Made by a program: the position numbers and the translations under genes. Below the pieces are notes generated by a model. It had not been told where the DNA came from and ran no database searches. It saw nothing but the letters and a program-made list of their open reading frames with translations. 64,000 bases of DNA from Opitutaceae bacterium (GTDB lineage Bacteria > Verrucomicrobiota > Verrucomicrobiia > Opitutales > Opitutaceae), in assembly GCA_030648295.1 (NCBI GenBank), contig JAUSID010000083.1, positions 23,338-87,337 of the forward strand. Direction: 5' to 3'. Shown here one piece after another: positions 23,053 to 61,237 of this stretch. Numbering within the stretch: the stretch's first letter is position 1; every line of letters starts with the position of its first letter.

Positions 23053-23804
23053 GCCGACGAAACGCTCACGCGTTCCGCTACGGGGCGCACGCTGAATTCC
23101 CGTCGTAGCGGAACGCGTGAGCGTTTCGTCGCTTGCGGGCACCGTCCTTGGACATTAATTCATGCCGCGTGCCCCATGACTCTACACGGCACGTAGGCCG
23201 TCTGCTCCGACTGCAGGAAGAATATTACCGCGGTCTGTCATTCGTCCATTGGTCGATGACGATGGAAAGCCGATCGCAGGGCTGGTTGGATGCACTGCAT
23301 CACGCCAAGGTGCGGGAGCTCTTGTGTCATGCGCTCGGCCGTTACGGTGTTGTTTGTCCAGCGTATTGTCTCATGCCGGATCACGGTCACTTTCTTTGGA
23401 TCGGGCTCAATGAGATGAGCGATCAAAGGCTCGCGGCCGCTGCCTTTCGTGAAGGGTGGAACTTTGAGCTGCGCCCGGGAGGCCGCCAGCTGCAGCGCCA
23501 GCCATTCGACCATGTGCTACGTGAAGAGGAACGCGAGCGGGGTGCGTTCGCCGCTGTTGCCCAGTATATTTTCGAGAACCCCGTGCGGGCGGGGCTGGTT
23601 GAAAAGTGGGAGAACTACCCGTTCCTCGGCGCTTTAGTTCCTGGCTATCCGATCCTGGATCCGCGTGAAGAGGATTATTGGGATCGGTTCTGGCGGATAT
23701 ACGGCAGACTTGCTGGATCGGTGTGAAGCCGACGAAACGCTCACGCGTTCCGCTACGGGGCGCACGCTGAATTCCCGTCGTAGCGGAACGCGTGAGCGTT
23801 TCGT
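23053..23804 (+). mobile_element. REPtron: RAYT gene bracketed by two identical 77 bp double-REP blocks
   Basis: 23053-23129 and 23728-23804 read identically: gccgacgaaacgctcacgcgttccgctacggggcgcacgctgaattcccgtcgtagcggaacgcgtgagcgtttcgt. Confidence 0.85.
23133..23726 (+). CDS. REP-associated tyrosine transposase (RAYT / TnpA_REP); N-terminus uncertain
   Basis: CPAYCLMPDHGHFLWIGL (HUH-type motif, read as H-G-H) and FAAVAQYIFENPVRAGLVEKWENYPF (catalytic Tyr helix). Confidence 0.85.
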   Translation: MRAPSLDINSCRVPHDSTRHVGRLLRLQEEYYRGLSFVHWSMTMESRSQGWLDALHHAKVRELLCHALGRYGVVCPAYCLMPDHGHFLWIGLNEMSDQRLAAAAFREGWNFELRPGGRQLQRQPFDHVLREEERERGAFAAVAQYIFENPVRAGLVEKWENYPFLGALVPGYPILDPREEDYWDRFWRIYGRLAGSV

Positions 23805-51463: not shown

Positions 51464-51565
51464 GCGGAGTTGTATCGACCCTGCGTCCGGATGGAGTGAA
51501 AACCCACCGTGATCTGCGGGATCAAGACCCATTCCCCGCACGCCGCGAAGCGCTACAATCGCCTG

Positions 51566-51757
51566 ATGAGTACGACCCCAACTCGTTCCGCACCGGCCGC
51601 GTCCACGTCTTCGATGGCAGCGGCGCCAGCCGTTTTCGTCATCAATACCGTGCAGACTGAAACCGTCGCCACGAATACGGAACTCACGCCCGAAGAGCAA
51701 TGGGCGCTCTTCGAATTCGAATTGAAATACAGTGACTCCGGACATCAGCCCTGTTGA
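51566..51757 (+). CDS. Small protein (63 aa) with C-terminal LTPEEQWALFEFELKYSDSGHQPC
   Basis: Paralogous to the next small ORF; shared C-terminal signature ending in Cys-stop. Confidence 0.7.
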   Translation: MSTTPTRSAPAASTSSMAAAPAVFVINTVQTETVATNTELTPEEQWALFEFELKYSDSGHQPC

Positions 51758-51843
51758 GGGAGCCAGCGATTATTCCTCCGATTGCTCCGCGCACCGCGGG
51801 CGCGAGCGTGACTTTGTCGCGGTTTCGCGTACGTTCGTAGCGG

Positions 51844-52053
51844 ATGTCGCCATCGCCCACTGATCCCCCGCGGCCAGATCCTCCGACCGACGCAATCGTC
51901 TCGGCCCAAACTGGGATTGCTTCAACCGCAGCGGCTGGTAACGCGGCTGCAGCCGGAGTGAATCCTTCCGACCAGACGCTTTCTCCAGCAGAACAAATGG
52001 CGGCATTTGAAAAGGAGCTGAAGGAAAACGACTGGGGCCACCAGCCCTGTTGA
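51844..52053 (+). CDS. Small protein (69 aa) with C-terminal LSPAEQMAAFEKELKENDWGHQPC
   Basis: 16 of 24 C-terminal residues identical to the 51566-51757 product; N-termini diverged and low-complexity. Confidence 0.7.
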   Translation: MSPSPTDPPRPDPPTDAIVSAQTGIASTAAAGNAAAAGVNPSDQTLSPAEQMAAFEKELKENDWGHQPC

Positions 52054-52307
52054 GGCAGCCAGGATCGCGTCAGCGCCAATCGCGTCGGCCGGTTAAACCG
52101 GGATTTCACGATTGTGTGACGTATCCGTGTCCCGGGCACGCTGGATTTCGTGCCAACTTTGTTCCCACCCCGCGGTGATGATCGATTTTTACAATTTCGA
52201 AATCACCTAGTTTCGGCGCCTCAACTTACTCAAGGGTATCTCCTTAGCTAAATCTGAGGGTGGGACCGGATAGGCACCGAAGGGCGATTAGATTACCATC
52301 ATGCGCG

Positions 52308-52820
52308 ATGTTGCCCGTCGTCCCCACCTCGTTCGATCGCCCCCCTTCCGCGCTGTCCACGGCGCGGGCGGCTTTGCAACGCGGCTTCACGATCTTCGAA
52401 GTGACGGTCTCGGCAACCATTCTCGTGCTCGTCATCGCGACATCACTCACCGTCCTGCAAACGGGCATGCGCGCTGTGGATACGGCCCGGAACATGACGC
52501 TCGCCGGCCAGATCAGCCAGAGTGTCCTCGAGGTGCTCCGGCTACAGAACTGGTCCCAGATCAGCGTCCTGCCTGCGTCGGCGACAATCAACATTGGGGA
52601 TGCCATCAGCTCGGGCAATGTCACCGCGCTCGACGTCGCGCTCAACACCGTGACCAGCCGGTTCACGTGCACGCGCACGATTTCCTCCCCCAAAACCGAC
52701 ATGCGGCTGATCTCCGTCACCGTCAGCTGGCGCGGCAACGATGGTCGTTTCCACTCCGTCTCCTCCCAGGCGAGGTATGCGAAGAAAGGGCTCAATGATT
52801 ACATCTACATCTCGCACTAA
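52308..52820 (+). CDS. Type IV pilus/pseudopilin-like protein (PilV-like)
   Basis: RGFTIFEVTVSATILVLVIATSLTVLQTGMRA: prepilin cleavage G/FT.xE. Confidence 0.85.
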   Translation: MLPVVPTSFDRPPSALSTARAALQRGFTIFEVTVSATILVLVIATSLTVLQTGMRAVDTARNMTLAGQISQSVLEVLRLQNWSQISVLPASATINIGDAISSGNVTALDVALNTVTSRFTCTRTISSPKTDMRLISVTVSWRGNDGRFHSVSSQARYAKKGLNDYIYISH

Positions 52821-53376
52821 CGCGCGCCGGCGCGGATTCACCCTGGTCGAGATTATGGTTTCGACCGGGCTCTCCACCATCGTGATGACCGGCGTGTTGT
52901 CGTCGTTCATCCTGATGGGCAAGAACAGCTACAACGCCGCCAACTACAGCGTGATGGAGGCGGAGTCGCGCCGCGCGCTGGAGACGTTCACCGAGGAGGC
53001 GCGGATGGCCAGCAACATTACCTGGACAAGCTCGAACAGTGTCACGCTCTCGGTTGTGAACGACACCAGCACTTACCTCGTCACCTACGCATACGATACG
53101 GGGAGCAGCGGCAGCACGGCGAAGTGTTTCTACCGACGCCTCGGCGACTCGAGCAGCACGCAGCCAGCGCAAATTCTCGTGCGTAGTGTCACCGACTTCG
53201 CATTTCGCCGCTACAAAGTCGTCAACGGGTCGGACTTCAGTGCCGCGAATGATCTCGAGACGAAACAGCTTCAGATCACGTTGCGCACGGTCCGGACCGG
53301 CACGACCACGGTCAACGCGACCAACGCCGTGCTGTCGGCGCGGGTCGTGTTGCGCAACAAGCACGTCTCGACTTGA
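52795..53376 (+). CDS. Prepilin-type protein (PilW-like)
   Basis: RRRGFTLVEIMVSTGLSTIVMTGVLSSFILMG. Confidence 0.88.
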   Translation: MITSTSRTNARRRGFTLVEIMVSTGLSTIVMTGVLSSFILMGKNSYNAANYSVMEAESRRALETFTEEARMASNITWTSSNSVTLSVVNDTSTYLVTYAYDTGSSGSTAKCFYRRLGDSSSTQPAQILVRSVTDFAFRRYKVVNGSDFSAANDLETKQLQITLRTVRTGTTTVNATNAVLSARVVLRNKHVST

Positions 53377-53386
53377 GGCGCGATCG

Positions 53387-54745
53387 ATGAACCCGAAACC
53401 CAATTCCCGACGCGGCTCGATCCTCGTGGTGGCAATGCTGTTTGGCACGCTGATGGTGGTGGCGCTGAGCAGTTATGTCGCGCTGAACACTCACTCGTTG
53501 AAGATGGCCAACCGTTCGTTTTACGCGAGCGAGGCGATGAACATGGCCGAGAGCGGACTGGAAGAGGCGGTGTGGTCGTTCAATCAGGCGTACCAAGGTG
53601 AAGCGAGTGCCTGGAATGGCTGGAGCATCAGCGGCACGGCCGCGACCCGTACGTTCACCGATTTCACGCTCGGGACGAATGCCACCGGCTTCGTGAAAGT
53701 GTATGTGGACAACTACAATCCTGCGCCGGCCATTCAGCCGAACGTCATTGCCGAATCCACCGTCACTCTGCCGAACAGCCAGGGCAGGGTCAGCCGGATG
53801 GTTGAAATCAAGATGCGCCGCCGTTCCTATTTTGCCGCGGGGTTGGTGGCGAAGAATGCGATCAACTTCACCGGCAACACGGCCAGTGTGGACAGCTGGG
53901 TGTCGGATCCGGACAACGATGCCTCGACGGCGGCCGTGCCGTACGGCTCATCGGTGCGCCGCGACAAGGGAAGCATCGGCGCCACGTCAGTTACCGCCAC
54001 GATTTCGGTCGGCAATGCCGACATTTGGGGGACGGCCTCGGTCGGCGGTTCAACGGCAACCAACATCACCGTCGGCTCCAACGGCCGCGTTGGTCCTTTC
54101 TCGACCGGCGCCGGCATCAAAGATCCGAACAGCGTCGCCAGCGACTTCAATGCCAGCCTCGACATCGTATCAAATCCGACCACAGGCACCGTGCTCGCGT
54201 CGATTGGGTCGACGATCGGGACCGAGGGCACGACGACCGTCTGGCGCACCGCGTCGTGCATCACGTCGAGCCTTACCGTCTACGGCAACGTTACTCTCAT
54301 CCTGACCGCCGGTGCCGGCGTCGACGCCATCGACATCGCGGGCTCGGACGGAATCACCCTCGCCCCTGGAGCGACGCTCACCATCTACACGGAGGGCGAC
54401 GTGAAGATTGCCGGCAACGGGCTGGCGAACCCGAACGACCGGCCGGATGCATTTCAGCTGTGGGGTACGAGCACCAGCACGATTCCTCAAGACATCCAGA
54501 TTGCGGGGAATGGGGCGCTCAAGGGCGTGATCTATGCCCCGAACGCGAATGTAAGGATCAATGGCAACGGCGATGTGATGGGCGCAATCGTCGGCCAACA
54601 AATCACGTTGGATGGCACGGCCAACTTTCATTACGACGAATCACTCGGAACCCGGAACGAAAACACGCCGTTTGGCATCACCAAGTGGCGCGAGCTCCTC
54701 ACTCCCACCGACCGGGCGGTATACGCGAGCAACCTCGCGTTTTAA
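53387..54745 (+). CDS. PilX-like minor pilin/surface protein with C-terminal beta-rich domain
   Basis: RRGSILVVAMLFGTLMVVALSSYVALNTHSLKMANRSFYASEAMNMAESGLEEAVW; IQIAGNGALKGVIYAPNANVRINGNGDVMGAIVGQQITLDGTANFHYDESL. Confidence 0.82.
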   Translation: MNPKPNSRRGSILVVAMLFGTLMVVALSSYVALNTHSLKMANRSFYASEAMNMAESGLEEAVWSFNQAYQGEASAWNGWSISGTAATRTFTDFTLGTNATGFVKVYVDNYNPAPAIQPNVIAESTVTLPNSQGRVSRMVEIKMRRRSYFAAGLVAKNAINFTGNTASVDSWVSDPDNDASTAAVPYGSSVRRDKGSIGATSVTATISVGNADIWGTASVGGSTATNITVGSNGRVGPFSTGAGIKDPNSVASDFNASLDIVSNPTTGTVLASIGSTIGTEGTTTVWRTASCITSSLTVYGNVTLILTAGAGVDAIDIAGSDGITLAPGATLTIYTEGDVKIAGNGLANPNDRPDAFQLWGTSTSTIPQDIQIAGNGALKGVIYAPNANVRINGNGDVMGAIVGQQITLDGTANFHYDESLGTRNENTPFGITKWRELLTPTDRAVYASNLAF

Positions 54746-60764: not shown

Positions 60765-61237
60765 GTTCAGAACGGTTCGTGTCCAGAATCGTTCTTGTTT
60801 GGAACGCGCGTTTACGCGGCCAGGGACGGCCAGAATAATCGGCTCGCCATGTGGACACCGGGGACCAAGGGTCAGCTCCCTTCCCGCGGCCCAAGCCGCT
60901 ATGTCCGCGTTAATAGCTCGTGTTGGTTTTCCCGCTGCGCCCGTGAGGACGTTTCAGCCACTGGATTCCTTTTGGGGACATCGCGACATCGGACGCTTCA
61001 GGGCTAAAGAAGGCGACGCCCAACAGGGCCGAGGGCAGCGGCGGCCTTACTCTTTGCTATCTGCCACGTGGGCCGGGGTCAGGCCGTTCGCCGTTTCCTC
61101 CTCCCGGCGTGCCTCACACGAAAATAAAAACGAAGCGCGAACGGCCTGACCCCGTGCGCCAGTCCCCTTCGGACTCGCGTCGCGGAGACTGATTCACAGC
61201 ACCAGGCCATGGACGGCTTCATACTTGGATCCGATTA

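What the first reader, a model, noticed from the sequence alone, without database searches (positions are those of the whole stretch)
51566..52053. Tandem small proteins sharing a C-terminal ...FExELKxxDxGHQPC-stop signature
Two consecutive ORFs (63 and 69 aa) have diverged Ser/Thr/Pro/Ala-rich N-termini, but their last 24 residues align without gaps: LTPEEQWALFEFELKYSDSGHQPC and LSPAEQMAAFEKELKENDWGHQPC (16/24 identical). Both end in Cys directly before TGA, and downstream DNA is also similar (cagccctgttgaggg/cagccag). A conserved tail with terminal Cys suggests a peptide tag, metal/thiol ligand, processed peptide or interaction motif. No family was recognised and no maturation enzyme is adjacent; neighbours are an EcsC-like gene and pseudopilin genes.
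Basis: partly seen in the sequence, partly recalled or inferred. Interest (0 to 1): 0.7.

Follow-up and report, generated by a model that had tools for sequence, protein, structure and literature searches.

The report
Portable Verrucomicrobial GHQPC protein tail
A 24-residue protein ending (…DWGHQPC), of no known family, is kept almost letter for letter in scattered Verrucomicrobiota while everything in front of it changes, and it has been grafted onto many unrelated proteins and picked up by phages, which suggests a small stand-alone docking peptide whose cellular target is still unknown.

Summary
ORFs 51566-51757 and 51844-52053 end in related 24-residue tails (16/24 identical). The tail is a real, undescribed family: 72 loci in GTDB genomes, all Verrucomicrobiota by title, and 53 of 252 genomes of the host family, nearly always one copy per genome. 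Selection acts on the tail protein: in close pairs it shows 20 synonymous and 0 non-synonymous changes, while the Pro/Ala/Ser-rich N-termini are nearly free. The tail is portable: it ends an O-methyltransferase, a CDGSH protein, the genome's only DHFR, a YhbY protein, a cupin, a CxxC protein and a Gfo/Idh/MocA oxidoreductase. One T4-like phage carries a clean ~79-bp insert coding only for the tail, absent from four sister phages; another viral contig carries a whole host-like gene. Stand-alone genes often share a gene-specific promoter (GTGACA-17-TAnnnT) 6-12 nt before ATG. No neighbour recurs; the downstream gene is usually convergent. PqqD and MNIO maturases are absent from all or most carriers. 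Best reading: a trans-acting C-terminal docking peptide (helix plus DWGHQPC hook), comparable to CP12 in working but not in sequence. The target is unknown.

The parts
51566..51757 (+). small ORF, copy 1 (63 aa), disordered-type N-terminus plus diverged tail
   Evidence: W19->S and other departures from the family consensus
51683..51754 (+). 24-codon tail of copy 1: LTPEEQWALFEFELKYSDSGHQPC
   Evidence: profile match E 2.2e-16
51554..51559 (+). possible -10 box TACAAT, 6 nt before ATG of copy 1; no GTGACA -35
   Evidence: sequence; comparison
51844..52053 (+). small ORF, copy 2 (69 aa), canonical member of the family
   Evidence: AlphaFold2: only helix is residues 48-61
51979..52050 (+). 24-codon tail of copy 2: LSPAEQMAAFEKELKENDWGHQPC
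51808..51813 (+). -35-like box GTGACT of copy 2, matching the family promoter GTGACA
51830..51835 (+). -10-like box TACGTT of copy 2 (16-bp spacer), 8 nt before ATG: near-leaderless transcript predicted

Best explanation
The functional unit is the tail, not the ORF. It is a C-terminal docking peptide: an N-capped amphipathic helix ([ST]PEEQM..[FY]E..LKE) followed by the hook D-W-G-H-Q-P-C at a free carboxyl end. It acts in trans in the cytosol on a partner encoded elsewhere in the genome. The Pro/Ala/Ser-rich N-terminus is only a spacer, so any protein can serve as the carrier. My choice of mechanism: the helix lays the hook into a pocket of a host enzyme or regulatory protein and switches it (inhibition or assembly), possibly with redox or metal dependence through His21/Cys24; phages acquire the tail to control the same host target. 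Shown: protein-level selection confined to the tail, the strict terminal position, portability, the lack of a linked partner, a conserved gene-specific promoter, and presence on two viral contigs. Inferred: that the tail binds a protein, that binding is the function, and what it does to the partner.
For: Tail conserved over 72 loci plus the two window copies: E5, Q6, L14, D18, G20, H21, P23 in 74/74, M7 and W19 in 73/74, C24 in 72/74; stop always next; TGA, TAG and TAA all used. Close pairs L065/068, L076/094, L077/081, L079/080, L096/100: tail 20 synonymous, 0 non-synonymous; N-termini about 31 against 73. AlphaFold2: a single helix exactly on the tail, the rest without structure. Carriers: O-MTase, CDGSH, DHFR, YhbY, weak cupin, Gfo/Idh/MocA; one tail per genome in the fusion genomes searched, so the fused copy stands in for the stand-alone gene; the DHFR-tail is its genome's only DHFR, so the tail is cytosolic and no strong degron. 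Phage L213: ~79-bp insert coding only the tail, against sisters about 95% identical in DNA; L144: a host-like gene inside a GC-rich island of an AT-rich contig. No recurring neighbours.
Against: No partner was identified. Patchy presence (53/252 genomes) means the partner is not essential, or does without the tail in most relatives. A peptide substrate (carrier or unusual RiPP) is also compatible with a tail-only function. The lack of a linked partner is unusual for dedicated inhibitor-target pairs.
Confidence: 0.45

Rival explanations
1. Precursor or carrier peptide: an unlinked enzyme recognises the helix and modifies the DWGHQPC end, or builds a metabolite on it (as with pearlin carriers, LysW/AmCP, MNIO or PQQ-type RiPPs).
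For: Variable N-terminus with a fixed C-terminus and a terminal Cys; MNIO enzymes act in the known pathway in which Cys is appended to a carrier's C-terminus (PMC9303977); LysW ends in EDWGE (PMC10433800), and the tail shares DWG; L102/L104 put it behind a CxxC..CxxC segment.
Against: MNIO (PF05114) in only 7 of 20 carrier genomes, PqqD in 0 of 20 (its controls rang), Lant_dehydr_N in 0 of 20 (its controls did not ring, so inconclusive). No enzyme is adjacent. The terminal Cys or His is lost in GHQPG and GNQPA members. A phage gains little from a precursor.
Confidence: 0.2
2. Immunity or self peptide: the tail keeps an unlinked toxin or defence effector inactive; a phage that shuts off host genes brings its own tail to avoid triggering it.
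For: Patchy presence within genera; two viral acquisitions, one of the bare tail only; function in trans from any carrier.
Against: No recurring toxin or effector neighbour; PADLOC models give nothing for the window proteins; antitoxins are normally next to their toxins.
Confidence: 0.2
3. Ribosome arrest peptide or attenuator: the conserved 24 residues lie in the exit tunnel at the stop codon and control the next gene.
For: Right length, strict position before the stop, N-terminus irrelevant.
Against: The downstream gene is convergent in 44 of 69 loci and never the same; DNA after the stop is not conserved; tails on long enzymes and at the end of a phage gene set.
Confidence: 0.05
4. Tag that sends its own carrier somewhere: degron, compartment-targeting or secretion signal.
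For: A disordered linker plus C-terminal helix resembles cargo tags (general knowledge, not tested).
Against: Most copies carry no cargo; the cargoes are unrelated cytosolic proteins, one the genome's only DHFR; one copy per genome.
Confidence: 0.07

Closest known systems
CP12 (conditionally disordered regulator of GAPDH and PRK)
   Same: Small, disordered, with a C-terminal region of one helix that becomes ordered; also found fused to other domains (CBS); its C-terminal region is carried by cyanophages (PMC3906501).
   Different: No AWD_VEE motif and no Cys pairs; a single terminal Cys; no sequence match; partner unknown.
Amino-group carrier proteins LysW/ArgW
   Same: Small protein with an essential, conserved C-terminal tip containing DWG (EDWGE) (PMC10433800).
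   Different: LysW ends in Glu, the attachment point; this tail ends in HQPC; no Zn-ribbon globular domain in most members; no linked LysX-type ligase seen.
Pearlin carrier peptides (TglA, TmoA)
   Same: C-terminal end of a small peptide is the working part; Cys chemistry at the end (PMC9303977).
   Different: There Cys is added by a PEARL; here it is encoded. No gene cluster.
Pup/UBact modifiers (from memory)
   Same: Disordered small proteins, conserved C-terminus.
   Different: No GG[EQ]-type end, and no proteasome or ligase neighbours.

Membership tests
CP12 | AWD_VEE core motif | tested here: not met
   absent from every aligned tail and N-terminus
CP12 | N- and/or C-terminal cysteine pairs | tested here: not met
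   one terminal Cys in the conserved region
CP12 | binds GAPDH/PRK | not testable with these tools
   no complex prediction available
LysW/AmCP | C-terminal EDWGE ending in Glu | tested here: not met
   all members end in GH[QR]P[CG] or GNQPA
LysW/AmCP | Zn-binding Cys in an N-terminal globular domain | tested here: not met
   only L102/L104 carry CxxC..CxxC; L102, the one scanned, has no Pfam match
Pearlin carrier peptide | PEARL (Lant_dehydr_N) in the genome | tested here: inconclusive
   0 of 20 carrier genomes, but no control genome rang
MNIO-type RiPP | DUF692/MNIO enzyme in the genome | tested here: not met
   7 of 20 carrier genomes
PQQ/SPASM-type RiPP | PqqD recognition protein | tested here: not met
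   0 of 20, controls rang; fused recognition domains not excluded
Arrest peptide | conserved co-directional downstream gene | tested here: not met
   44 of 69 convergent, no common gene
Toxin-antitoxin pair | adjacent partner gene | tested here: not met
   no recurring neighbour
Selenoprotein | in-frame TGA read as Sec | tested here: not met
   the stop is TGA, TAG or TAA, nothing conserved after it

The most novel reading that the evidence does not exclude
A phylum-restricted, fully portable 22-24-residue C-terminal module that is by itself a complete trans-acting gene product, selected as a bare cassette by phages (a ~79-bp insert), and controlling an unknown host target, possibly an anti-phage effector.
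Probability: 0.35. Interest if true: 0.85.

Novelty: new variant of a known kind. Interest (0 to 1): 0.72.

Why it matters
It shows a minimal functional unit of about 24 codons that evolution keeps while swapping everything in front of it, and that phages carry. Finding its target should reveal a control point of cell physiology or phage interaction in aquatic Verrucomicrobiota, which are poorly studied. It also gives a ready tool: the tail works on any C-terminus and can be used as bait.

Tried and rejected
Operon partner: blastp clustering over 73 loci found at most 8 loci sharing any family, and a Pfam tally of 114 nearest genes showed no theme. Solved structures: only weak helix matches. 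Literature for GHQPC: nothing relevant. Phages and plasmids in GenBank: no match. Wider viral pattern DWGHxPC: the other hits are chance or internal to a carbamoyltransferase. Regulon search with the strict promoter pattern: 4 sites in 252 genomes, three at tail genes and one at a GYF_2 gene beside a tail gene, so no wider regulon; only a minority of tail promoters match the strict pattern, so looser regulon members could be missed. Sliding-clamp motif (QL.LF): considered from memory; rejected because position 4 is often Arg and the motif lies in a predicted helix. AlphaFold2 of the phage carrier was too poor to use.

Full report
What is there. The window carries two consecutive small ORFs on the + strand, 51566-51757 (63 aa) and 51844-52053 (69 aa). 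Their last 24 residues align without gaps, 16 identical. The window genome holds only these two copies plus one member of a paralogous family on another contig, ending in ...LEAHDPGNQPA (L003). Copy 2 is canonical. Copy 1 has lost features that are otherwise almost invariant (W19->S, M7->W).

It is a family. A profile of the tail finds 53 of 252 genomes of the same family (a few of the 53 are weak matches) and, by degenerate pattern plus tblastn, 72 loci in GTDB representatives, all Verrucomicrobiota by title, many of them lake, groundwater or peat MAGs. An even draw over the phylum finds few. Presence is patchy inside genera. Each of 20 carrier genomes holds one copy, except one with two.

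Selection. Over 72 loci plus the two window copies, E5, Q6, L14, D18, G20, H21 and P23 are invariant, M7 and W19 occur in 73 and C24 in 72, with free use of synonymous codons; the stop follows directly and is TGA, TAG or TAA; the DNA after the stop is not conserved. In five pairs of close relatives the tail has 20 synonymous and 0 non-synonymous changes, while the N-terminal parts have about 31 and 73 (pooled ratios in that call include poor low-complexity alignments and are not used). The N-termini are Pro/Ala/Ser-rich and not alignable between genera. AlphaFold2 on a 50-sequence alignment gives one helix, residues 48-61 of the window protein, followed by an extended NDWGHQPC (moderate confidence).

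The tail is portable. In a minority of loci it is the C-terminus of another protein: O-methyltransferase (L037/L038), CDGSH iron-sulphur protein (L069, L087; also L130, L192 by sequence), dihydrofolate reductase (L078), CRS1/YhbY (L088), weak cupin (L098), Gfo/Idh/MocA oxidoreductase (L198), and a CxxC..CxxC protein without a Pfam match (L102/L104). In L026 the same methyltransferase stops before the tail and the tail is a separate gene. The fusion genomes searched whole have no second tail. The DHFR with the tail is the only DHFR of its genome. So the tail works in the cytosol, tolerates any carrier and does not destroy it.

Viral copies. IMG/VR contig L145/L213 is T4-like (UvsX, DnaB-like helicase, carbamoyltransferase, QueC). 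Against four sister contigs, three of them about 95% identical in DNA, it has one clean insert of about 79 bp at the 3' end of a methyltransferase-like gene (no Pfam match; that label is by eye) that codes for NEISKEEQMKRYEDSLKEDDWGHQPC-stop and nothing else. Loss in the sisters cannot be formally excluded. Contig L144 carries a complete stand-alone gene similar to that of L090, in a stretch of about 60% GC within a contig of 34-42% GC; a chimeric assembly cannot be excluded for this one.

Expression. Many stand-alone genes have GTGACA, a spacer of 16-18 bp (mostly 17) and TAnnnT, ending 6-12 nt before ATG, which predicts near-leaderless transcripts. The window's copy 2 has GTGACT-16-TACGTT-8-ATG. 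A strict form of the motif occurs 4 times in 252 genomes: three at tail genes and one at the gene next to a tail gene. It is a property of this gene rather than of a detected regulon.

No partner nearby. Clustering and Pfam tallies of neighbours find nothing recurrent; EcsC and pseudopilins are incidental. The downstream gene is convergent in 44 of 69 loci, which argues against a leader or arrest peptide.

Mechanism. The anatomy is that of a short linear motif with an obligatory free C-terminus. I conclude that it is most likely a docking peptide acting on an unlinked partner, comparable to CP12 (disordered, C-terminal helix that folds on its target, domain fusions, phage copies; PMC3906501), but without CP12's sequence features. 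Precursor or carrier models were tested by enzyme content: MNIO in 7 of 20 and PqqD in 0 of 20 carriers, Lant_dehydr_N in 0 of 20 with silent controls. An immunity-type peptide against an unlinked effector remains open and would explain patchiness and phage capture, though no effector is linked.

Limits. No target is known, nothing shows binding, and the searches were limited to one phylum plus viral collections. Other phyla were reached only through two degenerate patterns.

Noticed in passing
G000 contig C155:42616-42822 (locus L003/L187) and L143/L186: Paralogous small proteins ending LTPKAxAKAANKLPxAEQLxxFExxLEAHDxGNQPA: same frame of the tail with W19, H21 and C24 replaced; found clearly in only two of 252 genomes.
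   Followed up: partly
L049:5164-5803: A GYF_2-domain gene directly upstream of a tail gene carries the same rare promoter (GTGACAGCGGAGAATTTTGCTGCTA); the only non-tail strict match in 252 genomes.
   Followed up: partly
L079, L080: Two close relatives end in GHQPG instead of GHQPC, so the terminal Cys can be lost.
   Followed up: no
window 52260-54745 +: Pseudopilin-like operon (GspI/PilV-like and followers), a likely type II secretion or pilus cluster next to copy 2; its relatives lie near the tail gene only in L026.
   Followed up: partly
window near 61237 and 62320, and near 23080 and 23755, minus strand: Two other pairs of ORF ends with identical or nearly identical stretches (22/24 and 16/24), probably DNA repeats.
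   Followed up: no
L145:1903-5075: T4-like phage with a carbamoyltransferase-QueC-methyltransferase set; the tail insert sits at the end of this set, facing a convergent gene.
   Followed up: partly
L144:4000-5000: GC-rich island of about 1 kb in an AT-rich viral contig, holding the host-like tail gene and a Q/P-rich ORF.
   Followed up: partly
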